Shown here one piece after another: positions 13,599 through 60,624 of a stretch of DNA of 64,000 nt. The stretch is from Glutinoglossum americanum (lineage: Eukaryota; Ascomycota; Geoglossomycetes; Geoglossales; Geoglossaceae). A program made the translations under genes and the position numbers. The DNA lies in assembly GCA_020080175.1 (NCBI GenBank), contig JAGHQL010000001.1:335040-399039 (forward strand). Reading direction: 5' to 3'. How positions within the stretch are numbered: the stretch's first letter is position 1; every line of letters starts with the position of its first letter. Under the pieces are notes generated by a model, which saw only the letters and a program-made list of their open reading frames with translations, made no database searches and had not been told where the DNA came from.

Positions 13599-16351
13599 AT
13601 GGCAGGCGCGACGCGGACCCCACCGACTGAGGGGCGGCGAGTTGGTGTACCGTCTCCTCGACCCAAAGGGCGCGGTATGTGTGGCACTGCTTATGTCAAT
13701 GGAAGCTCTGCGGCAGTCTCGAAAATGTCCTGGAATGGTACCTAATGCCTGAATATTTTGCTTAGACCACGCAAAGGAAACGCTCTGTCGTAATGTCACG
13801 ATTTATGGGCATTGCCGATATGAGGATAAGGGTAGGTCAATTGTCCTCGGCGGTAGCGGCCGACTGATTGGGTGGTGTAGGATGTGCGTTTAACCACGAT
13901 CCCACGCTACATGGACAGAAGAAAGATGTACCCCAGGCCCAGGTAGACAGGTGTGTTCGACTTGGAATTTTGAACCTCGTTGGGAGCAGAGCTGATTAAA
14001 CATGCTCCCGCAAAGTCTAAAAAAGCGCCTCAATGTGGATTCTCCTGCTTTCACTCCAACTCTCATAGCCCCAACAAGCAATGGTACTCCCTCAATAAGC
14101 ACACCATCGAAGAGTACTACCATCTCCCCCAAGGCGGCAAACGCTGCGCCATTCACGCCGAAAAACATGAGCGCAGGTTAGTTGCGATAACTAATTGAAG
14201 GCAGCTTGTGGCTTGCGCTCACTTAGCTCTTTTTTTCACAGGCACCGCGACTCCTCCAGCTTATCAGGAAGTACCTAGTTCAGAGTATGTCTTACGCTTT
14301 TTCTACCGTTGTGTTGCTACGGAGCGATGTGGGGTTTGACACATAGACAGACCATATCTAATACCCGAGGCGCAAGACTTCTTACCTCAGTCCTATGAGG
14401 CTTTGCAACTGGTATGATTTTGTTGTTAGCGTGTCATTCAGTTACCTAGTGGTTGTCCTGGGTCATGGTCATTCATCGCGTTTGCCCTTTACGGAAGGCT
14501 CGGTTGTGTCACTATCTATCTTTAACAATTCTCCTTCATCTTCCACTTCCCGATACCCTCCACGACACAACATTATGGCAGGTCCATACGCATCCGCTCC
14601 GCGAGGAATGGCGGCGTTCAATAACTTTAGCCGTAATGAAAATAACCCAGTCTGGATGCTGACATGGACCCAGGGCGATGCCAACAATGTAGCTACAAGT
14701 CCAAACCCCTATGACCCCTTTACGCCTACATCGTTGGCTGCAGCGGTGGCCAGCAATCACCAGAATCAACTTAATCCATATGTCCAAGATGCGACGGCGA
14801 TGGCCGGCATGGGTAGCTATTATCAAGGACAAGGAAACTTCACTCAACCTGTAAGAACTAAGGAGACAACCCATTTAAAACTCATGAGGTAACACACCTA
14901 AAATAGCTCCAATACCACCTCTATGCCCCTCTAGGACCACACAGGGAAAATCTATTGGCCTACCAGAGAACTGCCCATGATTTTTTCTTTTCCGATGCAC
15001 TCCGGGAAGAATTACAGCGGAAGAGCGAGGCATCTCTGCAGGTCCTACCGAGTAAGGAAGATTCTTCTCGACGCTACGCCATTTTCTGACTGTTGGCGAC
15101 TCTAGATTCATCTCTCCCAGCGCACATTGATCACTTCCACTCCCTTGTACCGCTAGATACCACGAACCAGAAGAACGCTACTATTTTCGGATACCCAAGC
15201 TGGGTCTATAAGGCTGTCTCCAGTAAAGATGGCCATATATATGCGCTGAGGAGGCTTGAAGGTAGAGGTCCCTGCGTTCTACAAGTACGCCTATAAGAAA
15301 TAACTAACATGCTAGTTCCGCAGGCTACCGCTTGACAAACGAAAAGGCCATCCGCTCCGTCCAGTCGTGGAAACGCGTCAGCAATAGCAGCGTGGTTACA
15401 ATTCACGACGCTTTCACCACCCGTGCATTCGGTGATAGCTCTCTAGTCTTTGTAATGGATTACCACCCGCTTTCCAAGACGCTTGCCGATAACCACTTTG
15501 GAACAGCCGGTCGCTTTCAAGGTCGCCCCTCAGGGCCGCATGTGCCCGAACCAGTCCTGTGGAGTTACATAGTCCAAATTTCATCGGCGCTAAAGACAAT
15601 CCACAGCAGTGGGCTTTCAGCGAGGCTAATTGAACCCACTAAGGTTCTGCTAACGAATAAGAACCGAATCCGCTTGAACTCCTGCGCCATATTTGACGTA
15701 GTCCAGCACGATTCTCCACTATCCATGGTGGAACTTCAGCAGGACGACCTTGTCCAATTTGGCCGGTTAATCCTGTCCATCGCTACAAACAATCCTGCTG
15801 CTATACATAACATTCCGAAGGCTATCGAACACGTCGGACGCTTATATACGACCGAGCTGAAAGATTGTATCTTATGGTTACTTTCCCCATCAAACCCGCA
15901 GAGTGCAAAGGGAATCGACCAATTCCTCGGAGGTATCGCTGGCCATCTCGCGGCAAACTTTGACTACACTCTCCACTACGACGATCAGCTCCACACCGAA
16001 TTGAACCGCGAGCTAGAGAATTCCCGAATCCTACGTCTTATGACCAAGCTGAACTTCATCAACGAAAGACCTGAATTTGCGCAAAATGAGCAATGGTCTG
16101 AGACTGGCGAACGTTACTTCCTGAAGCTCTTCAGGGACTACGTGTTTCACCAAGTCGATGCCCAAGGGAATCCTGTCATTGATCTCGCACATGTTTTGAC
16201 CTGTCTCGCGAAGCTGGATGCGGGCGTTGATGAGAAAATTAGCCTAGTCAGCAGGGACGAGCAGAATTGCCTTGTTGTCAGCTACAAGGAGTTAAAAAGG
16301 GGGGTAGATGCTGCCTTTCAGGATTTACTGAAGGCCAGTAGGAGGACTTAG
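13599..16351 (+). CDS. PAN3: PAN3, regulatory subunit of the PAN2-PAN3 poly(A) deadenylase
   Basis: Ten exons were reconstructed: 13599-13674, 13766-13831, 13881-13950, 14016-14176, 14242-14284, 14351-14411, 14674-14850, 14907-15051, 15106-15261 and 15324-16351, giving 660 residues. Residues about 32-55 form the N-terminal CCCH zinc finger (CRNVTIYGHC, then a Cys and CAFNH), which binds poly(A). A linker follows with RLNVDSPAFTP and ISPKAANAAPFTPK, then the PAM2-like and low-complexity region. The C-terminal half is the pseudokinase (IFGYPSWVYKAVSSKDG, YALRRLEGYRLTNEKAIRSV, FVMDYHPLSKTL), then the coiled coil and the knob domain (LRLMTKLNFINERPEF ... YFLKLFRDYVFHQVD) that holds PAN2. It acts in cytoplasmic poly(A) tail trimming by recruiting PAN2 to Pab1-bound mRNA. 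The 262-nt intron 14412-14673 is much longer than the others and remains open in one frame. Identity is certain; the small 5' exons are well supported by frame and family. Confidence 0.95.
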
Positions 16352-38585: not shown

Positions 38586-40934
38586 ATGGGGGCGCCTCTG
38601 TATCCGTACGGCCTTTGCCCGCTAGCCGATCCTGCAAGGGACCTTCGCTTGCTCGAGATCATAGATAATGGCCGTCCAATCGAGTGCAAGCTCTTGAACG
38701 ATTGCCGAGAACCCTATGATGCGCTATCCTGGTGCTGGGGCCCACCCGGGCCAGACGAGAAAGAAATCCGGATCTTCCACGGTGACCGGTCATATATATT
38801 ACCATTGTCACGTAACCTTGACTCCGCGCTGCAGCGGCTTCGGGATCGTAAGGTGCTTCGGGTCTAGATCGATAAAATCTGCATTAACCAGCTAGATAAC
38901 TTTGAGAAAAATAATCAGGTGCCGATGATGGCAAGCGTCTACGGGAAAGCAAGTCACGTTTACGTTTGGCTGGGCGAAGAGAGAGACGATAGTAAGCTAG
39001 CTATAGAATTCATCAAGAATCGAGTGCTTAACCTCCCAGACTTTGATCGCCTAGTTAAGGACAGGGAGACTAGCAGGGCGTGGAGCGCACTGTCGGCATT
39101 GATGAAACGGGAATGGTTCTCTCGTCGATGGATTGTGCAAGAGATAGCGCTGGCTCGAGACGCGGTGCTACTCTGTGGACCTCACGATATTAAATGGCTG
39201 GATTTTGCTGATGCTATATCACTGTTCAATGAAGTCGAGACGGGGACGCGTAGCTTCTCAGAGGTGATGAGGAGCAGAGACGAGTTCAGACACATACCAG
39301 ACTTCTTCGGGCACGTTCCGGCATTCAGTGCTACACGCTTGGTTGAGGTCGCCAACAACCTTTTTCGTCGACTTGCCGGTGACGAACGAGAGGCTTTACT
39401 CAGTCTGGAGTATTTGGTCTCTACTTTTTCGGCCTTTCAAGCTACCCAGGCTAGAGACACGATATATGCGCTTCTTGCGATCGCCAGAGACACACTGCCG
39501 CATACAACAAAGCAGACTATGGATAACATGGTGGCATCGTACTCGGAAAAAATTAAGACAAAGTTTATTGAGCAGATGTCGAAGAAGGCTGTTTCGAAGC
39601 CATACCATGTCGATTATTCGCTCCCTGTCTCGGACGTGTATGTAGAATTCGTAAAGTTTTCCATCGCAGGGTCCGATCAAACCAGGGCTCTCGACATCAT
39701 CTGCAGACCTTGGGCGCCGCTACCGAAGTTGGGGGAGCAACCCGAGACAGAAGACTGCTGGCGGGCTATTTTTGGTGAGGAGGAATCCAAGAGACCACCT
39801 GGCGAGGGTCTTGATTCGATTCCCTCGTGGATACCAAGTATAGCCGATGCAGCCTTCGGGATAGAACGTTCGGCCCAAAGTATGAGGCGCAAGAACGCAG
39901 ACACTCTAGTTGGGGTGCCCCCTCAGCGTAATTACATGGCAGCTGGCAGCCGTGTCGTGACCAAGGAGCTGCGGTTCGAAGACGGAAAGACGGAGCACAG
40001 TAGTTTCAGCGACCTGAATGGCACGCATTACCACAGCATGTTCGTCGAAGGCTTTATCCTGGATACAGTGGCTAAATTAGGTGACACATCTCAGCATGGC
40101 AACATCCCGGAAGACTGGTCGGGCTTGGGACGAAACAGGAAATCAGACAGCCAGACTCGTAAAGAGCTTCCCGAAGAGTTCTGGCGAACACTCGTTGCGG
40201 ATCGGGGACCGAATGGGGGAAACGCGCTGAGATATTATCCACGACTCATTTCCCACGCGTTCGAGCAGGGTGTACCTGGTGATACGCTCAACACGAGTCA
40301 TATCATCAACTGGGGCAGCCCCAAAGTTGTCGGTGATGTGCTAAGAAGGATCCAGTCTGTTATCTGGAACAGACGATTGACGCGAACAGAAAAACTGAGG
40401 CTGGGACTTGTTCCAAAAGCAGCGAAGCAGGGAGATTTAGTGTGCATCCTGTATGGATGCAGCGTTCCTGTCGTGATGCGGAAGATCGAGAAAACAAGGG
40501 AAGGGTTAGAGAGTCAGGAGATGCAAAGGAAAGAAAAAAGGAGGAAGGTGGAAATGGAGGCAGCAATCAAAATAGCAGGAAAATGGCGTAAACTTCTGGA
40601 GTCTCGAAAGGCAGCGAGTCTACAGGCGGCTATACCGAAGAGAAGTCCTCATGCCCAATCGACCGCTGGCGCAAGCCCTAGCCAAAAGCGGAAAAGGAAT
40701 CACGGAGATACAGGCGGTGGTTTGCCAGGAAAGAAATGGAAGGGTAGCGAAAACGTGAGCAGCCGGCAGGCGACCAATCAGAATCCGGAAAACCATAGCA
40801 CCGCAGCTACCAGCAAGCTCAAGAACGATAATTCTGTGTTCTACCAGCTGATTGGAGAGTGTTATGTTCATGGGATGATGAACGGAGAAGCGATACACCT
40901 GCAATTGGAGCGGACGCTCTTTGAGATTAGGTAG
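38586..40934 (+). pseudogene. HET-domain protein with one in-frame stop codon
   Basis: One continuous frame of 783 codons is interrupted only by TAG at 38865-38867 (codon 94). The product is a heterokaryon-incompatibility (HET) domain protein. It has YDALSWCWGPP, the IDKICINQ block right after the stop, QVPMMASVYGKASHVYVWLG, and WFSRRWIVQEIALARDAVLLCG. The C-terminal part has ARDTIYALLAIA, VDYSLPVSDVY, GDLVCILYGCSVPVVMR and FYQLIGECYVHGMMNGEAI, typical of long HET proteins, plus a lysine-rich insert (KEKRRKVEM, SQKRKRNHG) that may be a nuclear signal. The stop lies where related proteins have Trp (WIDKICINQ), so TGG to TAG is the simplest change. HET domains trigger cell death in non-self fusion. 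Whether the stop is real, read through or a sequencing error cannot be told here. A minor point is that an E/K-rich coding-like stretch (41101-41364) follows without a shared frame. Confidence 0.85.
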
Positions 40935-41660
40935 GAAGAAAGCTGCTCCCTCCACTTTTCGTTCCGGATGACAGCCCCACCCCGGAGGCGGGCCCGATGG
41001 AAGGGAACAGTTCACTCAACCATAGCGCCCGTGAGCATGACCGGCGGGACAGGCGGCTTCGTGAAGAGTCACGCAGACGAGAGCGGTCACGGAAGAAGCG
41101 ATGGAGCCTGCCTGTCTGCAGAAAGAGGCGGAAGAAACAGCGGCGGCCGAGCAAGCTGGACGAGAACGACTCCGACAGGAGATAGACGAAAGAGTAGCTG
41201 CTGAGCAAGAGCGCCTCCAAAAAGAAGCTGAAGAAAGAGCTACTGCCGAACGTGCCGCAGAAGAGACGCGACTTCAGATCGCTGAGCAAGCTAAACAAGA
41301 ACAGCTGCAACTGAAGGCGGACGAAAGAACAACTGCCGAGCAAGAGCGTGTTTTCTCTCCATAGCAATAGGCAGTTACTTGACAAATCTCTACTTTAGCA
41401 TCTAGCGAAGCCATATATCCTATATAGAAGAGCTTCAGACGACCTTTTCATATATTTAGTTTTTAGTAACATGTAGTTTCGGCAGAGTCATTGTAGATTA
41501 TAGAGTACTATTAGAGCAGCCCAGTTGAATCCAATGAACCACGCAGTGTTTACAGCTAAACTTCCCAATGACGCTAACAAATACTGCATCAGGGCCCTCT
41601 GTGAAAGCGATGGCCTCTAGGCTTAGTGCGCGCTTGCGAGCCTGTTGGGGTAATATTATG

Positions 41661-43121: not shown

Positions 43122-46100
43122 TCATCCCTCTCTTATCTCCCCCAGCATAGACGAGCAGCGCTTGGAACATGCTATAGTAGTGGGATGGTTTAATCCAAGT
43201 GTCTTCTCATAGCCTGCATAGGTTCTTTGATAAAGCAAGGATGCATCGTCATACTTCTTTTGGCTGTGAAGCAAGATGGCAAGATAATAAATGCTTGTCA
43301 GTGTGTCTGGGTGATCCTTTCCTAGCATTTTTTCCCTTCCGTCCAGTGCCCGCCGGTTCATCTTAGCCGCTTCATACTTGCCCTGGTATTGCAGTAATAA
43401 AGCCAGATTGCTGATGCTCGTCAGTGTGTCTGGGTGGTCCCTCCCTAGCATTTTCTCCCTTCCGTCTAGTACTCGCCGGTTCATCTCCTCAGCCGCCTCG
43501 TACTTGCCCTGGTATTGTAGTGATAAAGCCAGATTGCTGATGCTCGTCAGTATGTCTGGGTGATCCCTCCCTAGCATTTTCTCCCTTCCGTCCAGTACTC
43601 GCCGGTTCATCTCCTCAGCCGCTTCGTACTTGCCTTGGTACTGCAACACTAAAGCTAGGTTGCTGATGCTCGTCAGTGTGTCTGGGTGATCCTTTCCTAG
43701 TGTTTTCTCCCTTCCGTCCAGTGCTTGCCGGTTCATCTTCTCAGCCGCCTCATACTCGCCCTGGTATTGCAGTGATAAAGCCAGATTGCTGATGCTCGTC
43801 AGTGTGTCTGGGTGATCCTTTCCTAGTGTTTTCTCCCTTCCGTCCAGTGCTTGCCGGTTCATCTTCTCAGCCGCCTCATACTCGCCCTGGTATTGCAGTG
43901 ATAAAGCCAGATTGCTGATGCTTGTCAGTGTGTCTGGGTGATCCTCTCCTAACGTTTTCTCTCTTCCGTCTAGTGCTCGCCGGTTCACCTTCTCAGCCGC
44001 CTCGTACTTGCCCTGGTACTGCAACACTGAAGCTAGATTGCTGATGCTCATCAATGTATCCGGATGCTCATAGCCCAGTACCTTTTCTTCTAGCTCCAGC
44101 GCTTGCCGGTGCATCTCCTCGGCCGCCTTGTACTTTCCCTGATCCCTAAACACTACCCCAAGGTTGTTTACGCTCATCAGTGTGTCTGGATGCTCAAAGC
44201 CCAACACTTTCTCCTTCAGTTCCAGTACTTGCCGGTGCATCTCCTCAGCCGTCTCGTACTTGCCCTGATGACTAAGTACCACCGCGAGGTTGTTCATACT
44301 CATCAACGTATCAGGATGCTCGGGGCCCAATGTATTTTCTCGTATAAAAAGAGCATCTAGCCCTTTTTCGTAAGCAAGATTATATCGTCCTTGTGTCTCA
44401 TCGTAGGAAGACATATTGTGAAGAAGTTGTGCGCGCTTCAGTAAATTTGAGTCAGATGTGAAGGTATATCGAGCTACAACTTGTACATGTGGAGACAATG
44501 CTTCACATATGGCCCAAGTGCTATAATCGCAAGATGGAAATGCCATCGTTAATATATTCAAAGCTTCTTCTTGCCACTTAGTCATTTCTCCCTGAAGCTT
44601 AAGCCATCTTCGAACCGAAATCTGCACGAGTCGGTGAATTTCAAAGCTTGCTCTCCCCTTCTCAGCAATAACCAAACCGAAGGCAATTAATGCCCCAAGG
44701 GCGGTTGTGAACTTGGTCTTCCGCTCGCCATCTCTATGCAGGAGAGTTTTTGGGATTCCTTGTCGATCCAAAACAGCCATGAGAGACAATATCTCAGCTG
44801 CTCGTGGCATTTGTTGTCTGATTTGGTCAAAGGATACTTTCCATGTCCGAATGACTGAATTTCGACTCTCGAAGTCTCTTCTAATATCCGGCAGGTCCTC
44901 ACTCAAAAGATCTTGTATCTCAGAATCCTCTGCGGAGAAAATTTCAAGGTATTCTCCAACCGTAATGCTGTTTTCGCTGATATAAGCGGCTGCTTGAGTA
45001 ATTGCAAGAGGCAGATATCCTAAAACGTTAAGAAGTTCTCTAGACTTGGTCTTGTCCAAACTGTCTTCCTGCGACACTTTTGACCATAATAATTCCATTG
45101 CTTCTTGCATACCCGTTGGCGAAACTATAATTACTTTCTCCCTATTAGCTAGTCTTTCTCCAACCCGTTTATCCCTTGTTGTGATTAATATCGAGCCGTT
45201 TGAACTAGAAGGAAGGTAATTGATTTACGGCACTCTCTGTTCGCTACCTATTGATAACGGGTTCGGCTTGGCGCTGAAGATTTCTATATCATCGGCATTG
45301 TCTAATACTAACAACCAAGGCCCATTCACATCGTCGCTGAGTCACCTTGAGACTAGTTGGAATGTATCGACATTCGAATCGTTCCAGTTAAGCAAGTAGA
45401 GCTTCTTTGCGATGTCCTTGTATGCTTGATCCATCCTATAGATAGTGCTGGCATGTATCCAGAAGACATGGCTTTCGGGATGCCGTTCTCGGAATCTATA
45501 GCAATATTCAATGGCGATCTGGGATTTCCTGTACAAGAGTCAACGAGATGTCAGCACTATTAGCAGACAAACTTACCCCACTCCACCAATGCCAGCCAGT
45601 GCAATGCGCCTCTGGACTTCGAATTGTCTGCTAATGTTCGCAATAACGTCTTCTCGGCCAATGAACTTTAAATCCCGTTCAAACGGCACTTCGAAGCATG
45701 CCATCCGCGAATTCTCGACATCATCTAGCTTGAATTGCTCAATATCTCCTTCACAGCACTTATTGGTTCCTGATAGGAGACAAAGAGCTCTAGTATCCGG
45801 TCTACGGTTGGGATTTCGATGTAGCATTTTCTCCACGCCATGGAGACCTTCAATAACCTTGACGCAGGAAACGCCAAGGCCAGGGAAGTTTTCCGAGTCG
45901 CTAAGTACATGTATCAATGACCCGTGCATACTGCAGTAGGTAATTAGCCTTTCGATCCATCTCTGAACGTTCGATAATGTCTGCGCAAAGCCACTGGAGA
46001 GGCCATCCATTGCAGTTTCAGTAATATCAAGACCATCTAACTCGTCGGCGGGGGACTTGCGGTACCGCTCAAAATCGCTTAGGCTCTCTCCGAGCAAGAT

Positions 46101-48148
46101 TGTGTACATTTCGAGCCAAACGCAGCCCATCGAGAAGATATCAGATGCTCGACCACGCGGCTCGCATAACAGCACTTCGGGAGACGCATACATAGGCGTA
46201 TGACCGGTCGCACCATGGGTTTGGGTTTCATGCCCACTGTCAACCCTCGTCGATAGGCCGAAATCTTCGATGAACAGTCAGCAACGAGTTATTGATAAGT
46301 TCTGCTAATCATACCCACGATAACTCACCTGCAAGGTAAACCTTATAATCCCTTTCCGTTCCACGTTCTTGCACCAAGATGTTGCTTGGCTTGATATCCT
46401 TGTGCCGGACAAACTGAGAATGAAGATAGTCCAGACCATGGATGAGACACTTGAAAAACTTTTCCAGAGCCTGTTTTCGAGCAATGTAATCCGACTTATT
46501 CAATGAGGCTTCTCGAGGCCTAGGATTCTGCAGGTCAGAAGTGGGTCCATCTGATGGTAGCGCCCTAAAAGACTCAATGCTCCCCATAAATGTCTGGAGA
46601 TTCATATCCGCAGCTGGGTATATTAGAAGCGAGAAGAAGCGCGGTTCATTAAGAGTGCCAACCAAGCGAATGATGTGCGGGTGCCGCAGCCCTTGAAGCA
46701 TTTTGACCTCATCTAACAACATCTCAAGCTTTAACAAATGCTTGGTTTTCTGTAGCGATTTCTTCGCGAATATATACGGCCCACGCCGGGTAGTGCGGAC
46801 CTTGGTCACCAGTGAAGATGACCCTATAGCTATGACGTCTAGTTGTTCGAGTGGCACAACTTCATTCGGGCCGTAATCGACATGGGCACCCCTGCCAGAC
46901 CAATCAATTCCCTGAACTACCATATTCTCCGCCTTACTCGCTATGTGAGATATTGAAGGTTGGGCCTGTGGTACGAGATCCATGGTTTCCAAGGCATCGA
47001 CGGTCGGTATGTCGATACTATAAAGAGTAAGCTGTTCCATGTCTGGATATTCTGGCTGTAACTTTCCCCTAGGGCTTGTTGAAGCATCGTTAGCCTGAGG
47101 GATGACTTCAGTGGGCAGGCTGTAATTTTCCAAAGTCACATCACAACAAGGCCCAGGCGGAAAGCTGCTAACTATCCGCATGCAATTTGGACGACCGGAA
47201 TCTGATTCAGAGAGCGTTTCCTTAATGAGTTCCAAGAGCCGTGTCCACCACTCTGACTCTCCTGGTGGAAATTGACGATAAGGAGCATTCAGCCGCAGAC
47301 TTTGCAGCCAGGAATTGCAGGCCGCGAGGTTGGCTTCAAATGCAATCGTGGGTATATTCTCCCTCAGGCACCGACGGTGGTTTGCGTACTCCAGAAGAGT
47401 TCTACCACCTAGGACTGAAGCAATCTGGGAGAACACACATCCCATCGAAAAAATGTCCGCCTGTCGACCGAAGGGTTTTTTCTGAACGACCTCAGGTGCA
47501 GCGTAAATTGGAGTAGTATAGAGAGTGTCGATATCCACACTGGAAGCTCCGTGAAGCGCCAAAGTCTGTCAAGAGTACCGTGATCTGGCGCTTCGCTAGG
47601 CGTCTGACAATGATGTTCTTCGGTTTGATATCCAAATGCTTGATGTGTGGAGTAGTCTCATTATGAAGGTATGCTAAGGCACCTGAGAGGCACTTGAAGA
47701 ACATCCCAAGACTGTAAAACTCATGGTACGCCTTACGATTCATGTTTGCTTCTTGCAACTCCTCTAGAAAGGTCTTAAGGTTCCACTGTCCAACAGGAAA
47801 CAGTAGTAGGTGAAGAGTCCAGCCTAAAGCGTATGTGCCAACGAGCTGGATGAGATGCCGATGTCGAAGCTGTTGGATGTGCTTTACTTCGCTCATAACG
47901 ACCTCTAAGCCTTTTCTGTAATCTCTAATTATCTTCTGGGCCAAAGGGCGTTCATCGTTGCTTTGGCAGATGACCTTCTGGACGACAGCGTAGCCACCAG
48001 ACCCTAATACCTCATGGGTTGCAAGTGGAATATCCTCTCTTTTACCAAATTCGACATGGTTCCCTCGACCCGACCACCCTGGCTCTTCAGTACAATTCAG
48101 ACCGATGTATTGTACGAAACAGGCATAAGGACTTTTGGGCTTCGACAT
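43122..48148 (-). pseudogene. NLR-like protein: two kinase domains, NB-ARC and TPR array, disrupted
   Basis: Reading down the minus strand from ATG 48148, kinase domain 1 has WSGRGNHVEFG, LGSGGYAVVQKV, HLDIKPKNIIV, TDFGAS and, after a +1 shift near 47543, PIYAAPEV. A second kinase repeats the WSGRGAHVDYG lead-in and has FAKKSL, HKDIKPSNILV, and DFGLST split by a 64-nt intron (46328-46265), then PMYASPEVLL. A linker ends FIGREDVIANISRQF and leads to an NB-ARC P-loop, GIGGVGKSQIA, which is interrupted by a 48-nt intron (45576-45529). The NTPase continues with WLLVLDNADD and GSILITTRDKRVG. In-frame stops are TGA at 45344-45342 (expected Trp) and TAA at 45227-45225 (probably from CAA). The rest (45110-43122) is a winged-helix-like region and about ten 42-residue TPRs of the kinesin-light-chain type. 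Catalytic Lys, HxD and DFG are present in both kinases. Such STAND receptors act in fungal non-self recognition; the dual kinase head is unusual. It is recently broken, or carries sequence errors. Confidence 0.82.
43245..44345 (-). repeat. Array of 126-bp TPR-coding repeats
   Basis: Nine consecutive units of about 42 residues follow the pattern LG..HPDTL.S..NLA..L..QGKYE.AE..., preceded and followed by degenerate units. Neighbouring units near 43692-43817 and 43818-43943 differ at a single base by eye. One unit near 43365 has lost a Glu codon (YEAAKMNRR), making it 41 residues. Such uniform repeats are typical of NLR sensor domains that evolve by unit exchange. Confidence 0.9.
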
Positions 48149-49528
48149 GCTTCAGGAAGGTTTTGCCGGATGGGAGAGTGGGATAACATTCCGTGACAGT
48201 CGCTCAAGAAGCCTATGGAAATGATACGGTCAGTCATGGTCACCTAGTGGGGATTGAAGACCAGAATATGTTTGGAGTTGGAGGATCTTAGATGTAGCTA
48301 CTAATAAAAAGGAAATACTTTTCAATAACAAGATCAAACTAGAATGCATATATTCAGATTGCTCATATGGCCCGAAGAATCGTGACAAGGGAACCTACTG
48401 CTCTGCAAACTGCGATAAACCTTCACGGTTCCCACGGGAAAGCTGTGTAGTGCAAGGCTTTAGATTAGATATGGCACGAAGCTAAACTAATCGCGAATGT
48501 TAGATAGAAAACTTTCCATTCCTTACATTGGGCTGCCTCAATTGTGCGAGCTTGGCGCGCGAGACCCATAAAAATGGCGCCGTCCCATTCCGCCCATTCT
48601 AACATTTCCAATTGGGAGCAGCAGAGGCGAGAACAAAAAATTTGTCATCGTTCATCGTTTTGATCCTAGCTACAGATATACGGTACAAAAGGATTTTCCG
48701 CGGATCAGGCGAAAAAAAAAGCATGTAAAAATACCCAATGGCTGTTTTTTTGTTTACGTTTTCAATTTTTAACTCGGATTGCCAGCAAAGTATTTTCCCG
48801 TGCCTGCTTAGCTGCCTTTCCTTTCAGGCGTACTCGCCTTCTCCCCCTCTCCTCCTTTCCATATACCCTCTAGGGGGGGCGTGCACTAATCCCGTTCCAC
48901 CCACCCGAACAACAAAGATTTCCCACATTCGATTTGATTAGCCGCCCCAAGACAGCCTCTCTAGCGGGTATTTCGAGACGGACACTTCAGGACTTCTTAG
49001 TCTGGAAATTCAGGGGTATAGCCAAGATTCGAGGACTGCTCTCTTTCTTCTTGATTGCAACGAGTCAGATACTAAAGGTTATGGTGAGGTTTCAATATCC
49101 AAAAGAGAACCCCTTCATGTAAAAGCTGTTGCTAGGATATTATCATGGGTGGGGCTAATTCTTGCTCCGCTGCTAGAACGCGGGTCTGTGCTGGAGAAAC
49201 CAGAAATCTCGACGGTAAGAACTTCTTACAGTCGCGAGCGAAACCGGCTTCCCCCCGTGTGCAGCAGCTGGAGCTTTTCTCCCGCTCTTGGCCAAGGTTC
49301 TCAGTGTACTCTATCGGCGTCAGCGAGAGTTTGGGGGGAGGGGGGGGGGGGGGGGGAAGGAAAAAAAAGGCTTTTTAATTGAAAATTAGGGGAAAGACTA
49401 ACAACCCCCCAAAAAAAAAAAAAACAAATATTTCCCCNNNNNNNNNNGTGCGAGGCCCGCGCTCTTGCGCGGGGGGTGGCGACGTGCCGGTCGGTGGTGT
49501 CGCGGGCGGGGGAGCGGGCGGGTGGGAG

Positions 49529-53998: not shown

Positions 53999-54010
53999 GT
54001 ACTATATTCT

Positions 54011-54521
54011 TATATAATTACCTTAGCAGGCTCAGGCCCATGACAGAGCTCATGAAGCTAACCGAAAGAAGTTATGCTCTGTTATAAGGCCTGAGCGCTA
54101 AATGTTGTAGTTTGGTATGCTACAAATTTCGCTTGATTCTGAGAAATATTTTGTAAGTGTATACCTAATACTGGGGGGGCACCTTATCTTGCTGGTTTAA
54201 AAAGCTTTTTCTTAAGTAAAGTAAAGTCCCATTTAGGCTTTGCCTTACTAAATTTTAGTTGAACCAATTTATAGGTATCGCATAACTCACTATATTTAAA
54301 TAATTTTATATTTAGAACTTTGTTGGACTGTGTTATGGTATATTGTTACCAGATACTACTTATTCTGAATTCAATGAACTTATGCAGTGCCTTACTTAAA
54401 CTTCTCAATGGTACTAGCAAATATTACATCTAGCACTTAGACCCTTTGAAAGCATAATGCCTTTTTGGACTTAGTGTACTATGCTGAACCGAGGGCCTGA
54501 GACTGCTAAGGTAATTATATA
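54011..54521. mobile_element. Possible MITE with 29-bp inverted ends inside the Tc1 remnant
   Basis: TATATAATTACCTTAGCAGG and following bases (54011-54039) are the reverse complement of 54493-54521 with one mismatch. TA at each outer end could be the target duplication. The interior is non-coding and AT-rich. Its right half overlaps the repeat shared with 41.5 kb, so the true element limits are uncertain. Confidence 0.5.
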
Positions 54522-54950
54522 AATTTTCTCAATGAATTGCCATTTACAGTTAGACTTGTCTCTTTGAGGTTGGTGCCTCACTTGCTGTTTTGTTAGTTGC
54601 TGTGGGACTACAATATAAAATTATTGCCATTTACCCTCCTCTCAATCTTCGTCCTTGCCTATTTTCTATCTTTAACCCTGCCCCTAACGTTGCCCTCTGA
54701 TGAGGGATTTTCTAAATTGGCAACATTCACGCATGCATATACTGTCTTGCTCCTCCCTTAATTTCCCTGTCCGAGGCTAACAGACAAGCATAGATTTTCT
54801 TTGAATTATACTTTGATCTTCTACCAGCTAGTAAACCTCTAGAATCGTAACTCATTTGATGTATTACACTCTGTCTCACTACAGCTGAATACTTTTAGAC
54901 TTACCTTAGTATTCTAGATAATCATAAAATCATATAGTAATTAAAGGAAT
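54360..54950 (+). repeat. Dispersed non-coding repeat, copy 2 (partner at 41515-42590)
   Basis: This is the AT-richer copy of the repeat, with most differences from copy 1 being C-to-T or G-to-A, as expected after RIP on one or both copies. It carries no open frame. Confidence 0.7.
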
Positions 54951-55549
54951 AGAGTTCTTTACTGATCAAGTTGATTACATAGTACAGTATAGTATAAGTG
55001 AAGGATTGAAGGCTGTGTGCCTTAGTTTTTAGCTCAGTATAGGTTGTTTCTTACATTGATTGAGTTAGGGGAAAAGACTTGGACAAAAGATATCAGGATA
55101 AGCATTTTAGCACTTTGGCTTAGGTGTATGGAGAGACAGATAATGATGAGCTTTACAAGGTATACTTTTAAAAGGGGTGATAGCATGCCTGTAACAGAGT
55201 TTAACTTCTAAAGTAGATTATGAAGCTACTCTTTAATGATTGTATGTGAAGTTATCAAGAGGTAGAATCAAGTATTTGTAATAGTTACTTATATAAGCTG
55301 GACCATGAAGGTCAGGTGTCACGGGTGTCAAGGCTAAGCTAGCCCTAAGGGGCTAGTCACGACGGAGCAAGGGAGGCCGGCCATGTGGCACGACAGGAGG
55401 GTAGGCCTAATAGTCTTTAATAGTCTATCTAATGTGATTATGGTATTGACCCATAAGGTTCCCTTTAGGACCCTCTTCAGCCTTCTATATATACTAATAG
55501 CTCTGAGGGGCCCACGGGTAGGGACCTGCCTAGTTCCCTCTATGGACAC

Positions 55550-55785
55550 ATACGGACCCCTCACCTCTGGCCATACTTCTATTAGGAAGTCTTTATGATG
55601 CTCATATGGTTCCCTCGCCACTGGCCATGCCTTCCACCGCTGCCCGTACTCCTATATAGAGTTCCTATGATGCTAGTGCAGTTCCTTTGTCACTGGCCTT
55701 GCTCCCATATGGAGTTTCTATGATACTCGTACGGTTCCTTCGACATCAGCCATGCTCTCATGTGGAGTTCCTTCATGACATCATT
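55550..55785. repeat. Four imperfect tandem units of about 50-70 bp
   Basis: Units share the pattern GGTTCC(C/T)T-CG-CA--GGCCATGCT followed by TGGAGTTCCTATGATGCTCGTA. They lie in the spacer of the inverted repeat. Confidence 0.65.
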
Positions 55786-55962
55786 GGTGGGGCCTTGTAG
55801 GCTCCATTCGTATGTTACCGACTTAGTGTATTACATATAAGGTAGTCCCCCCTATACTTCATCGGCCTTCCTCAGGGTTAGCCCTCCTTCTCAGCTTGTT
55901 TGGTGGCCTACCGGGCCCTTACCTGGTTGCCACCATAACATCCACACAGTTCATTATATATA

Positions 55963-56026
55963 ATCTCTAAGCATTCAAAATTTTTGAATGCTTAGAGACT
56001 TAGTCAGCCTCTGCCCAGAGGCTGAC
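55963..56026. repeat. Two adjacent perfect hairpins
   Basis: The first palindrome pairs TCTCTAAGCATTCAAAA with its complement across an essentially empty loop (about 55964-55998). The second pairs GTCAGCCTCTG (56003-56013) with CAGAGGCTGAC (56016-56026) around a CC loop. Both are intact although the surroundings are decayed. Confidence 0.85.
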
Positions 56027-56040
56027 AAAGCAATGAAAAA

Positions 56041-56142
56041 GTGGTAAGCGAGTAATTATTTTCAAAAAGAGTGGTAGTTCGGTTAATGAGTGTGGTAGGC
56101 CAGTAATTATTTTCAAAAACAGTGGTACGCGAGTAATTATCC
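56041..56142. repeat. Iterated GTGGTA..GCGAGTAATTAT motif
   Basis: The motif GTGGTAAGCGAGTAATTATT (56041) recurs as GTGGTAGGCCAGTAATTATT (about 56093) and GTGGTACGCGAGTAATTAT (about 56122), twice followed by TTCAAAAA. A related GGTAAGCGAGGTGGTAAATT occurs at 41883. Confidence 0.7.
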
Positions 56143-56435
56143 CTTTTACCTATAAGTCCCTTAGAGCCATTAGTATATATAGAAGGCTGAGGAGGGTCCT
56201 GAAGAGAACCTTATTGGTCAATACCATAATTACCTTAGATAAACTATTAAAGACTATTAAGTTTACTCTCCCATCATGCCATGTGGCTAGCTTCCCTTAC
56301 TTCATCATGACTGGCTCCTTAGAGCTAACTTGGCCTTGATCTCTATAATATCTAAACTTCGTGGCCTAGCTTATATAAGCAACCATCACACAGGGAAAAG
56401 ACATCTCCACTGCGGATATTAAGCAGGAGTTAAAA

Positions 56436-57500
56436 TTGGACAGCCTTTATAATACCGGTAATTGGAGAGTAGATAACCAGAGGCTACTATGTTATAAGGA
56501 GTCAGTTTACATCTCAACAGACCAAGTCATAAAGTATAAAATTATAAAGATAAATTATGATGACCACTATGCAGGACACTTCAGTCCTAACAGGATAATA
56601 GATCTAATTCGTCAGAAGTACTACTAGTAGAGACTTTCAGAAAATATATCATGACCTGTAGTCGGTTACTCAGTGAGGCCATTTAGGCCTTCATAACTAA
56701 GTAACTAGCTTGGGTTACACAAATGTTAACTAGTCTTTTACTGAGCACCAATAGTGACAAGAAAGTATACAATGCAATTTTAGTAATGGTAGATAAGTTT
56801 ATTAAGATGACAAAATACTTTTCAATTAATAAAACTATAGATGCAGCACAACTTGCTGACTTCTTTTGTAAATGTATAGTGTATATCTTTGGTATACTAG
56901 GGTCTATTGAAACAGACAGAAGAAGTATTTTTACAAGCTGATTCTGGTTGTTGCTATGTTACTACATGAAGACAAGACAACGACTCAGTACCATATTCTA
57001 CCTGCAGACTAATAGTCAGACGGAATGCTAAAACTAAGCATTAGAGCATTACTTATATACTTATACTAACTATCCACAAGATGACTGGGTGAAGTTGTTG
57101 TCACTAGTGGAATATACTTATAATAGTACTATATATTCAATGATAGGTGTTACCTCTTTCTTTACTATGTATGGCTACTACCCAAAGTTTACCTAAGACG
57201 TTACAGTCGATGTTTTCAAGAAAGAGGCTTCAGCAGCCTATAATAGAGCTACTTATATTAATACTATGTATGAGCAGCTGAAAGTATGACTTGAAACTAT
57301 GAGTGCCTATCAGGTAAAATATTATAATAAGTATCACAAGCTAGAGAAGTATAATACTAGGTAATTGGTACTCCTAGTAGTAAAAAACATACAAACTGAA
57401 AGACCAAGCAAGATGTTGGTCAACCAGTTTTTAGGACTATTTCGAGTTCTTGAACCTGTTGGTACCTAGGCCTACTGGCTAGTGATTCTATAGTTGTCAG
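56436..57500 (+). pseudogene. Ty3/gypsy retrotransposon integrase remnant
   Basis: Broken frames read as a gypsy integrase. First comes the His-rich zinc-binding part (DDHYAGHFSPNRIIDLIRQK), then the catalytic core (ILVMVDKFIKMTKYFSINKT, ETDRRSIFTS, then a stop where related elements have Lys, and FW). These are followed by TNSQTE and WVKLLSLVEYTYNSTIYS. At least six stops, mostly TAG/TAA at CAG/CAA- or TGG-type positions, and high AT content show RIP-like decay. Reverse transcriptase and gag are not visible upstream. The LTR-like sequence at 57929-58220 may be its 3' LTR. Confidence 0.85.
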
Positions 57501-57928
57501 GTCCTAGGGGAGTACTGCAAGCACTCAAGGCTCGAGAGAGTTATTCAGGAAGTCGTCCATGTACTTATAAACGAGTTCTCAAGCTTGGATGAGTATCACA
57601 GCTTGGTAGGAGGTCTAGTGAAATGTCAGAGGCAGATAGGCTGAGTAGAAGGATAGATATGGGGCCACCAGGTGGCTTCTATTAAATGAACTATATACAA
57701 GAGGTGTGTTAACTGATAGAGATTGAAAGGTCAACTCTGTTAGTTAGAAAAAGAGCTTGCAGGCTTGACTCAAGCATGGACCACATATTGGTTCAAGCTC
57801 ATGAGCTCTACCTCTTGTGGCTCTATGCACTGTGACAACAGTCTTTTGATAAGATTCACCCAGTATTTTATATATCCTTTTTGGAGCTGTATAAGTAATG
57901 TAAAAGTGATAGGCCACAGACATTACCT
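57501..57928. other. Decayed retroelement sequence
   Basis: The stretch between the integrase remnant and the LTR-like sequence is open to weak readings that could be the C-terminal chromodomain-like region of the element, but I cannot support a call. Confidence 0.3.
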
Positions 57929-58220
57929 GTTACGACTATAGCGGTCTACAATGTTACAACTATAACAGTCTACGTGCGGCTCATGTGTGGCCTACTACAA
58001 GCTATGGTGTTAGAGCTAACCCTTGGTATTCGGTGCGAGGCTCGCAGAGCCTTAGTGTTAAGAGTATGACTCGCTAGCACTATGCGGCCATACAGTGTTA
58101 TGCTTATATGTATATAAACCTCCACACACCCCACACCCCTCTTCTTCCTCTAGTTTAGTATTGTCTTAATAAAATCCACCTAATACGCCTTTCAGGTACC
58201 GGAACTGGCAATTCATGACA
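57929..58220 (+). repeat. LTR, copy 1 (possible 3' LTR of the gypsy remnant)
   Basis: This element starts TGTTACGAC and ends ATTCATGACA (TG...CA). It is highly similar to 63410-63678, including AGAGCTAACCCTTGGT, GAGGCTCGCAGAGCC and a TATATAAACCTCC promoter-like box. The first 23 bp are present twice in this copy. Flanks TTACC and TTCAC do not form a clear target duplication. Confidence 0.85.
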
Positions 58221-59475
58221 TTCACTCTGAGCCAGTATTCTTTCGCAAAGATATTGCCAGTACGGCGAAGGTATGCTTCCACCCAGCTAGTAAAGGTTCA
58301 TTGGAGGAAGGCAAAGGTGACAGTCCGGTCCTTCAGGTTAACTTCAGAAATTGCCTATGTAGAAGTCGAGAGGCTAGACTGCTGAACTTGAGCTGCAGTG
58401 ATCAATTGGCTAGCAGCCCCCTCTTGAAGGTGATGGAGGTGGCTTAGGAAGGCGGGAGGCACCTACATCTAGTTAGCAGGGGCTACAGACAGAGTATGGG
58501 AGTGCTAGAAGGTAGAGAGAGACTTACTAGAAGGCAATGCTTGTTTAACTACCAGTAGCAAGAATAGTTGGCATGCCTGTTGGAACGGGCACAAACGACA
58601 GTCAGGTCCACGGTATATTATTTAGTATAGTGTAGGTAATAATGATCGACGTGGGGAAGAGTTGGTTCAGTGCTGCTCCCAGGTCCAGAACTAGAGCGAC
58701 TCATACAAAGTATTATGACAGGAGTAGAAAGAAAGCAAAAGACCTAGTAAGGACAAAAACACAAGTGGCAGTAAAAGAAGAGTTGTTGACAGTGAGGCTA
58801 ACTGTAGGTGTAGATGATGAAAAAGGAAGGAAGGAAAAATGTAGCAGAAGTGAATATGTATGTGTGTAGGAGGTGCACTAGTAAGTTAGAGGTAAGCTTT
58901 AGCTTTAATCTTTAGCACTTGAGGTGCCTATCTATTGCTACGACATCAGTATAGTAGCTAGGCCAAGCAAATTGACAGTTTCCCTTGATTCGATTCTGAA
59001 ATGCCTTTGTTCTTACCTCCACAATTGGATCTACTAGAGGCTGAATGTATTGGGTAGTATGCACTAGTATAGCGATGGCTTATACTATTATTACAATAGA
59101 GATCAAGTGATAGGACAGTCAATAATATTGAGTAATATCCAATTTCTCCTTTATATGCTTAGTGGTCAGCTAGATTGTATTCAGTAGTCAGAAGATATGA
59201 GGTCTAGAAGACCAGACCTCGAAAGGGGGAGGCATTGTAAGGGATGCAGCTAGTGTTGCTTATATCACTTTCACTTGTCTTGCTAGATTGGTGTCAGCGC
59301 AGCAGCTGCATTCTGAGAGCTTTTGGATATGACATCATATATCACAGACCCTGTACTCCTTTTGAAAAGAATTGCTAGCTTCATTAAGAGGACAGCGATT
59401 AGTTCTATTACATATTGAATGACAATGGATTCTAGCTCTTTATATAGTTGTACTATAAAAGTGTAATGCTATATA
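58221..59475. other. AT-rich degraded repeat DNA
   Basis: No intact gene. A 75-codon frame at 58642-58869 rich in K/R (RSRKKAKDLVRTKTQVAVKE) may be a retroelement gag fragment, but this is weak. Confidence 0.3.
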
Positions 59476-59663
59476 TGTCACGGTTGTTACCGAGTACCGT
59501 GTTACTGTTGCTACATACAGTGTTGGGAACTAGTGTTAAATCACGTGACCCAGATATTTAAGCTGGAGGTTCCTTCAGAACCTCCTCCCTTCTACATCTT
59601 AGAATCGTCGAAATAAAGGCAACTTATCTTCGCTTTCTAAGCCCTTAATTTGTACTTGTGACA
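59476..59663 (+). repeat. Possible solo LTR of a second family
   Basis: The 188-bp segment begins TGTCAC and ends GTGACA, a perfect 6-bp terminal inversion. It contains a TATTTAAGC box, then an AATAAA signal near 59615, as LTRs do. No target duplication was found (ATATA against GTAGG). Confidence 0.5.
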
Positions 59664-60624
59664 GTAGGCCAGTAACACCGTGTGGGCTGACTGGTGGGTC
59701 AGCGTTCACAATTGAATTAATGGCATTTGACGTTGGTTTTGAGGTATTCCAGCCATGATCTTTAGATAGTGATTAGTACAGACTATGGGATTGAGCTAAG
59801 CATCTTTCATACTATTTTTTCAGGCTCGTAGCATTTTCTTATCACATCAAGCTCTAAGTGTCCTCCCCCGATTGAGCTCCTTGCCTACAAAGACAGCAAA
59901 ACTATGTCCCAGCTGAAGTTGCTCTTCACTGGTACATTCTTCGCTGAATCATGGTCCACCCGATTCTTTAGAACTTAAGATCAATTATTGAATCTTGTAA
60001 ACAAAATGAGACCAAAAGTCTACTGACCGCAACTGACTGAAGGTTGGATTCTCCGATGAAACAACCTCATAATTGACCTCTATATTTGCTCTCACATCAC
60101 TCCACGATAGAGACTTGAGAGATGCTGGCGAGCCAGTGGTAGCCTGAGAACTAGCAAGATTTTCCTTTTCCTGTAGGCGAAATACAGCAAACTCAAAAAA
60201 GGATTCATGACAGATTGAAACAAATCAAGCTTTCAAAACCTGCCCGGAAAGTGCGTTAAAATTGGTCTTCTAGGTATTCCAAGTTTCATTGCTATGTCCC
60301 TTCTTGTATCTCCTGTTTCTACCTATAATGTAATTACAGAAATAGATAAAAGTAAGACAAGAGTGGCGATTATGGGTAGAGGTGTTGAAAAGGATAACAG
60401 CTGATGAATGGAGATGTTGGAAAGAGGAATGACTGATAAGTGGAGGTGTGAAAAATTGTTGTTTTAGGGCTAGCTGATAATGGACAGCCCACAATAACAG
60501 TGTTAACCCCACAACAGCACTCCACTGCTCAGTATCGGGAAATCTTACATGTGAGTCTATTCAATCTTTGATGGAGAACAAAATGTAACTTAAGATTCCT
60601 TAGTTCTCAGTATTGTTATACAAG
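59664..60624. other. Degraded sequence with a minus-strand coding-like remnant
   Basis: The minus strand at about 60195-59990 reads without stop as EFAVFRLQEKENLASSQATT ... VRANIEVNYEVVSSENPTF. It then continues with a few stops, two at places where CAA or TGG would fit (KIQ-stop, GGP-stop-FSEEC). No family was recognised. It may belong to the same lost element as the Ulp1 fragment. Confidence 0.3.

What the first reader, a model, noticed from the sequence alone, without database searches (positions are those of the whole stretch)
43122..48148. Tandem-kinase NLR: kinase-kinase-NB-ARC-TPR architecture
The minus strand encodes two successive kinase domains, each preceded by the same WSGRG-x-HV-(F/Y)G lead-in, then an NB-ARC NTPase and a TPR array. 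Fungal NLRs with one N-terminal effector domain are known; two complete kinase domains with Lys, HxD and DFG retained suggest a duplicated signalling head, loosely comparable to plant tandem-kinase immunity proteins. This is the best candidate here for an under-described recognition system.
Basis: partly seen in the sequence, partly recalled or inferred. Interest (0 to 1): 0.82.

Follow-up and report, generated by a model that had tools for sequence, protein, structure and literature searches.

The report
Broken fungal immune-type receptor, two kinases
An earth-tongue fungus carries a gene for an immune-type receptor with two protein-kinase domains in front of its usual switch and repeat-sensor parts; the copy in this assembly is broken, and no intact relative with the same layout was found.

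Summary
On the minus strand, 48148-43122, lie two kinase domains (each with a WSGRG-x-HV-[FY]-G lead-in), an NB-ARC switch and nine TPR units. One open frame of 419 aa runs from kinase 1 into kinase 2, so they read as one gene. Two interruptions are introns; three are lesions (a frame break in kinase 1, two stop codons in NB-ARC). The host is Glutinoglossum americanum. The locus is already deposited as FGG08_000110; that model crosses the lesions with a 13-nt and a 141-nt 'intron' and so loses the DFG of kinase 1 and Walker B.

The body is an ordinary fungal NB-ARC/TPR NLR. Its nearest relative (Trichoglossum, 73% over the NB-ARC region) has a hydrolase head. The lead-in is a kinase-family signature, not a duplication scar: the two kinases are 34% identical and do not group, though a sister pairing is not rejected. 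Two protein searches found no other fungal protein with kinases plus NB-ARC. NB-ARC keeps its conserved residues, so the loss is very recent, or an assembly or strain effect. Kinase-headed fungal NLRs and two-domain heads are in print; I found no report of two kinases.

The parts
47540..48148 (-). Kinase 1: ATG, lead-in WSGRGNHVEFG, N-lobe to DFG and just beyond (203 aa)
   Evidence: Pfam Pkinase E 6.7e-19; Lys, Glu, HxD, DF in invariant columns
47500..47566 (-). Activation loop of kinase 1: frame break; loop shorter than that of kinase 2 by a length not divisible by three
   Evidence: three-frame translation, alignment
46906..47568 (-). Kinase 1 C-lobe (APE onward, ends ...GPCC) and a 79-aa linker, open into kinase 2
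   Evidence: one open frame 47568-46309, 419 aa
46329..46905 (-). Kinase 2 from lead-in WSGRGAHVDYG through HKD (HxD) to just before DFG
   Evidence: Pkinase E 1.1e-28 for the 419-aa piece, two stretches, best 243-404
46265..46328 (-). Intron 1, 64 nt, GTGAGT...AAG, just before DFG of kinase 2
   Evidence: splicing gives LADFG in frame; same intron in the deposited model
45577..46264 (-). Kinase 2 DFG to C-lobe, then start of NB-ARC to the P-loop
   Evidence: Pkinase E 9.7e-10
45529..45576 (-). Intron 2, 48 nt, inside Walker A (GIGGVG^KS)
45345..45528 (-). NB-ARC after Walker A
   Evidence: alignment with P0002; no Pfam match alone
45342..45344 (-). Premature stop codon TGA in NB-ARC
45228..45341 (-). 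NB-ARC stretch with Walker B (WLLVLDNADD)
   Evidence: lies inside the 141-nt 'intron' of the deposited model; no Pfam match alone
45225..45227 (-). Premature stop codon TAA in NB-ARC
44328..45224 (-). NB-ARC C-part (TTRD, GYLPLA, IHRLVQ), weak DUF7779 match just below its cut-off, start of TPR region
43122..44327 (-). Nine TPR units (eight of 42 aa, one of 41 aa), a partial tenth and the stop; units 4 and 5 are 98% identical in DNA
   Evidence: TPR_10 E 2.9e-127, TRF period 126, unit table

Best explanation
A fungal NLR (STAND NTPase) with a double-kinase head, very recently inactivated in the sequenced strain or damaged in the assembly. Shown here: the domain order, one open frame joining the two kinases, two introns, three lesions, kept catalytic and nucleotide-binding residues, a TPR array with recent unit copying, and other heads on the nearest relatives. 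Inferred: as in other NLRs the TPR array senses a non-self or altered-self ligand, NB-ARC exchanges nucleotide and assembles several receptors, and the crowded kinase heads phosphorylate each other and then a downstream target, probably in a cell-death or incompatibility response. The head was probably gained by joining two members of the WSGRG kinase family to an existing NB-ARC/TPR body. The copy as assembled cannot make the full receptor: its first frame ends inside kinase 1.
For: Pkinase in two stretches, NB-ARC and TPR in order on one strand. Open 419-aa frame from kinase 1 C-lobe to kinase 2 N-lobe. Nearest relatives share the NB-ARC/TPR body with other heads: P0002 and P0013 DUF676, L025, L028, L029 SesA; homology with P0002 begins just before NB-ARC. 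Of 110 NB-ARC-region sites conserved in at least 85% of 13 relatives, the window differs alone at 1, intact P0002 alone at 3, both at 3, so constraint lasted until very recently. TPR units 4 and 5 98% identical. Both kinases share 29 invariant columns with seven single-kinase relatives, catalytic ones included. A HET-domain ORF lies 2.2 kb away, tail to tail.
Against: No intact orthologue with this layout found, so the full protein is inferred from one broken copy. No expression data. Three lesions speak against present function. The glycine loop of kinase 2 is degenerate (AIGSSSLV) and both kinases sit on long branches (2.41 and 2.07 against a median of 0.94), so relaxed constraint on the head before the lesions is possible. 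A genome-wide NB-ARC search did not list the locus. The signalling mechanism is inference.
Confidence: 0.7

Rival explanations
1. The deposited model FGG08_000110 is right: four introns, a functional 1586-aa protein lacking the DFG of kinase 1 and Walker B of NB-ARC.
For: The four introns reproduce the deposited protein exactly; the 141-nt one is GT...AG and keeps the frame.
Against: One 'intron' is 13 nt, shorter than any spliceosomal intron I know of (recalled). The 141-nt one contains sequence that aligns with protein sequence of P0002 and P0013, Walker B included. Both lie where the lesions are.
Confidence: 0.06
2. The lesions are assembly errors and the gene is intact in the organism.
For: Conserved NB-ARC residues are almost untouched; only three lesions over about 1,640 codons.
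Against: None lies in a long homopolymer run (reading); two are stop codons in otherwise unshifted frame, less usual for assembly error (inference). Raw reads not available.
Confidence: 0.25
3. Two genes: kinase 1 alone and a single-kinase NLR beginning at kinase 2.
For: The four family members whose frames I read in this genome have one kinase motif each; Met codons occur in the linker.
Against: No stop after kinase 1 down to 46309; the 79-codon linker is short for a 3' end plus a promoter; kinase 1 ends with the family tail ...GPCC and runs straight on.
Confidence: 0.12
4. The kinases are integrated decoys (baits for effectors or viruses), not the output domain.
For: PKinase domains are C-terminal in 9 of 12 Sordariales kinase NLRs and were proposed as decoys (PMC12258605, passages).
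Against: Here the kinases take the N-terminal place where fungal NLRs carry output domains, and catalytic residues are kept.
Confidence: 0.2

Closest known systems
Fungal NB-ARC/TPR NLRs (Trichoglossum hirsutum P0002; Glutinoglossum P0013)
   Same: NB-ARC and 42-aa TPR body; window vs P0002 322/440 identical over the NB-ARC region
   Different: Heads are DUF676/abhydrolase, not kinases
Kinase-bearing fungal NLRs (PKinase class, Dyrka et al. 2014, PMC4986451; PMC12258605)
   Same: Kinase as an NLR domain (passages)
   Different: The passages seen speak of a PKinase domain, not of two in tandem; per-protein tables were not seen
Two-domain heads of fungal NLRs (PMC9815663; PMC10197012 section 13)
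   Same: Two consecutive N-terminal domains (passages; section read)
   Different: PMC10197012 describes two distinct domains of different function; here both are kinases of one family. The table of double architectures in PMC9815663 (Table A in S1 Text) was not seen, so a double kinase there is not excluded
WSGRG fungal kinases (Glutinoglossum C157 = FGG08_001730, C274, C287, C8; P0032, P0059, P0121)
   Same: Same lead-in (with small changes; P0121 has an insertion in it), kinase and CC tail
   Different: One kinase each, no NB-ARC listed; P0059 and P0121 carry ankyrin-type domains in their precomputed lists
Plant tandem-kinase proteins (Yr15 and others; search listing and abstract starts only)
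   Same: Two kinases in one protein
   Different: No NB-ARC/TPR fused (recalled); plant; often kinase-pseudokinase; relationship beyond the kinase fold not tested
Bacterial kinase plus NB-ARC proteins (P0191, named Chloroflexota; P0087, unnamed source)
   Same: Kinase and NB-ARC in the domain list
   Different: Distant (28-29% over 19-45% of the query), other accessory domains

Membership tests
Fungal NLR | N-terminal effector or signalling domain of a known class | tested here: met
   Two Pkinase domains; PKinase is in the published list
Fungal NLR | Central NB-ARC or NACHT with Walker A and B | tested here: inconclusive
   Residues GIGGVGKS, WLLVLDNADD, TTRD present, but stop codons flank the Walker B stretch; Pfam passes its cut-off only on the deposited model, and the genome-wide NB-ARC search did not list the locus
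Fungal NLR | C-terminal repeat array with high internal similarity | tested here: met
   Nine TPR units, units 4 and 5 98% identical
Fungal NLR | Uninterrupted coding frame (this copy) | tested here: not met
   One frame break and two stops. This bears on the copy, not on what its parts descend from; expression was not testable
Active protein kinase (each domain) | Lys, alpha-C Glu, HxD, DFG | tested here: met
   Invariant columns; DFG of kinase 1 read, DFG of kinase 2 across intron 1
Active protein kinase (each domain) | Glycine-rich loop | tested here: inconclusive
   Kinase 1 GSGGYAVV; kinase 2 AIGSSSLV, degenerate
Plant tandem-kinase protein | Two or more kinase domains in one protein | tested here: met
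Plant tandem-kinase protein | Common descent with the plant proteins | not tested
   No tree with plant kinases was built
Recent internal kinase duplication | The two kinases are each other's closest relatives | tested here: inconclusive
   34% identity, paired in 4% and 0% of 200 bootstrap trees, pairing not rejected, p-AU 0.333

The most novel reading that the evidence does not exclude
Intact alleles elsewhere in the population or genus make a receptor whose oligomerisation brings two non-identical kinases per protomer together, so that one phosphorylates the other: a kinase relay built into an NLR, a self-contained fungal counterpart of plant systems in which tandem kinases and NLRs are separate proteins.
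Probability: 0.25. Interest if true: 0.65.

Novelty: new variant of a known kind. Interest (0 to 1): 0.4.

Why it matters
What the kinase heads of fungal NLRs do is largely open (my reading of the papers seen). A two-kinase head would allow direct tests of whether NLR assembly works by kinase cross-activation, and would link fungal NLRs to plant tandem-kinase immunity by convergence. As it stands it is one broken copy; its main practical lesson is that the deposited model hides a probable pseudogene behind two implausible introns.

Tried and rejected
Recent tandem duplication of one kinase: not supported, not excluded. Lead-in as a private feature of this gene: rejected, it is shared by relatives. 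All frame interruptions as damage: rejected for two, which are introns.

A second kinase-NLR in this genome: none seen, within limits. tblastn with K1 and K2 over the 20 regions hit 2: L027 (kinase 4.4 kb upstream of NB-ARC, with a hydrolase-like ORF between, by eye) and L043 (kinase with TPR units, no NB-ARC hit). Comparing by eye the places listed, ten contigs, the window's included, carry both a kinase-type and an NLR- or TPR-type hit; apart from the window these hits lie within 1.5 kb of each other only at C263 (L046, kinase-TPR without NB-ARC seen, broken) and C21 (degenerate, not fetched). Those lists are lower bounds by the tool's own statement, and kinases unlike K1/K2 could be missed.

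Heads of relatives: tested by Pfam for L025, L028, L029, P0002 and P0013; judged by eye only for L026, L027, L030-L034 and L037; no head recognised at L040; L036, L038, L039, L041, L042 and L044 not inspected for heads.

Protein search 3 (alignment A1) was swamped by general kinase words: 99 hits, no NB-ARC seen in the lists as printed, and known relatives such as P0032 and P0059 absent, so it is uninformative. The first relative-rate script used a wrong phase and lost the NB-ARC N-part; one search replaces it. The 'TPR' query was out of frame and its hits were not printed. Rows left out of the trees: P0062 and P0124 and also P0123, P0125 and P0067. The relatives are 14 that I picked from the hits. 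No structure was predicted. A short-pattern count in the window added nothing.

Literature on two kinases in a fungal NLR: searches (2 papers; 20 listed of 118; 10; 1; 2), PubMed Central open-licence library only; none found in what I saw. Searches looked for the host's genome paper without success. Seen: passages of PMC4986451, PMC9815663, PMC12258605 and PMC12881547; passages and section 13 of PMC10197012; for plant papers only the listing and abstract starts. Supplementary tables, where a double kinase might be listed, could not be opened.
Full report
What is there. The minus strand of 48148-43122 encodes, in order, a protein kinase (K1), a linker, a second protein kinase (K2), an NB-ARC domain and a TPR array. 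K1 starts at an ATG one codon after an in-frame stop (48148) with the lead-in WSGRGNHVEFG; K2 has WSGRGAHVDYG. The open frame 47568-46309 (419 aa) contains the C-lobe of K1, a 79-aa linker and the N-part of K2 without a stop, the best evidence here that the two kinases belong to one gene.

Introns and lesions. Two interruptions are ordinary introns: 64 nt at 46328-46265, giving LADFG of K2, and 48 nt at 45576-45529, giving GIGGVGKS of the P-loop. Three are lesions: a frame break in the activation loop of K1 just after its DFG, and stop codons at 45344-45342 and 45227-45225 on either side of the Walker B stretch. The deposited protein P0001 (FGG08_000110, 1586 aa) is reproduced exactly by the two introns plus a 13-nt and a 141-nt 'intron' laid over the lesions. 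That model loses the DFG of K1 and Walker B, and the 141-nt stretch aligns with protein sequence of relatives; it is very probably a prediction artefact.

Host. P0001 lies on a contig of 399,039 bases, the length of the contig that holds the window, and is named Glutinoglossum americanum, a Geoglossomycete; that it is a saprobic, non-pathogenic earth tongue is recalled. The assembly has 25.8 Mb in 317 contigs.

The body. NB-ARC and TPR are ordinary. P0002 of Trichoglossum hirsutum is 322/440 identical over the NB-ARC region and aligns from residue 788 of P0001 onward, just before NB-ARC; its own head is a DUF676/abhydrolase. In this genome the same body type carries SesA heads (L025, L028, L029) or DUF676 (P0013) by Pfam; by eye others look SesA-, hydrolase-, patatin- or PNP_UDP-like. 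Head exchange on a constant body is thus common here. The TPR array has nine units of 42 aa (one of 41), neighbours up to 98% identical in DNA, as described for fungal NLRs (PMC10197012 section 13). Against the reading: NB-ARC is the least certain domain by profile, below cut-off in the pieces and not listed in the genome-wide search.

The kinases. In a nine-row alignment of K1 (N-part), K2 and seven single-kinase relatives, 29 columns are invariant, among them the catalytic Lys, alpha-C Glu, HxD and DF. The lead-in occurs in the relatives too. K1 and K2 share 102/301 residues; K1 shares 113/278 and K2 111/294 with the single kinase at C157. Trees do not pair them (4% of 200 bootstrap trees with 16 rows, 0% with 13), but both branches are long and a pairing is not rejected (p-AU 0.333). 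The head therefore looks like an old duplication or a joining of two family members, not a recent copy.

Relatives with the same layout. Of the 120 listed of 138 hits (candidates about 900-2865 aa), two list both PF00069 and PF00931: P0001 itself and P0087, a distant protein of unnamed source. Of 84 hits, again two: P0001 and P0191 (Chloroflexota). A few domain lists are cut off in the print, and 18 hits are not listed. The searches need shared exact 5-residue words, so distant cases may be missed; a third, alignment-based search was uninformative. Partial parallels in the same genome: kinase joined to TPR units without NB-ARC seen (L043 at a contig end; L046, broken) and a two-kinase locus without NB-ARC seen (L045).

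How recent is the loss. Of 110 NB-ARC-region sites conserved in at least 85% of 13 relatives, the window differs alone at 1, intact P0002 alone at 3, both at 3. Selection thus held NB-ARC until very recently, or the stops are not real. The kinases differ at 5 of 42 (K1) and 3 of 43 (K2) sites invariant in eight relatives; the eight relatives, each tested against the other seven, differ at 0 to 10.

Mechanism. Shown: parts, order, residues, lesions. Inferred: TPR sensing, NB-ARC exchange and oligomerisation, kinase trans-phosphorylation, output probably cell death or incompatibility. A HET-domain ORF stands tail to tail 2.2 kb away (38868-40931 +), a suggestive but weak neighbourhood.

What is known. 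PKinase is listed among fungal NLR head domains (PMC4986451, passage); 12 Sordariales NLRs have PKinase, nine of them C-terminal and proposed as decoys (PMC12258605, passages); two-domain heads are reported (PMC9815663, passages; PMC10197012, section 13). I found no report of two kinases in one fungal NLR; one search listed 20 of 118 papers, and supplementary tables were not seen.

Verdict. Observation confirmed; interpretation partly supported; a new variant of a known kind, seen once and broken.

Noticed in passing
window 38868-40931 +: HET-domain ORF (PF06985, E 1.5e-19), tail to tail with the kinase NLR; the match begins at profile position 52 at the ORF's first residue, so an upstream exon is likely.
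   Followed up: partly
window 41065-41364 +: Open frame rich in Glu, Ala and Gln, coiled-coil-like by eye, just downstream of the HET ORF; no Pfam match.
   Followed up: no
window 54001-60000: GC falls to 37.5-42% against about 46-55% in the rest of the window up to 54 kb; cause not examined.
   Followed up: no
window 49438-49447: Run of N next to G/C-rich low-complexity sequence, an assembly gap 1.3 kb upstream of the gene start.
   Followed up: no
window 15308-16348 +: Pan3 pseudokinase (PF18101), unrelated to the NLR.
   Followed up: no
L045 (C287:107500-113500): Two kinases in tandem, no NB-ARC seen, with another lead-in than the WSGRG family.
   Followed up: partly
L046 (C263:155800-160300) and L043 (C29 end): Kinase joined to TPR units of the NLR type without NB-ARC seen; L046 has several frame breaks.
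   Followed up: partly
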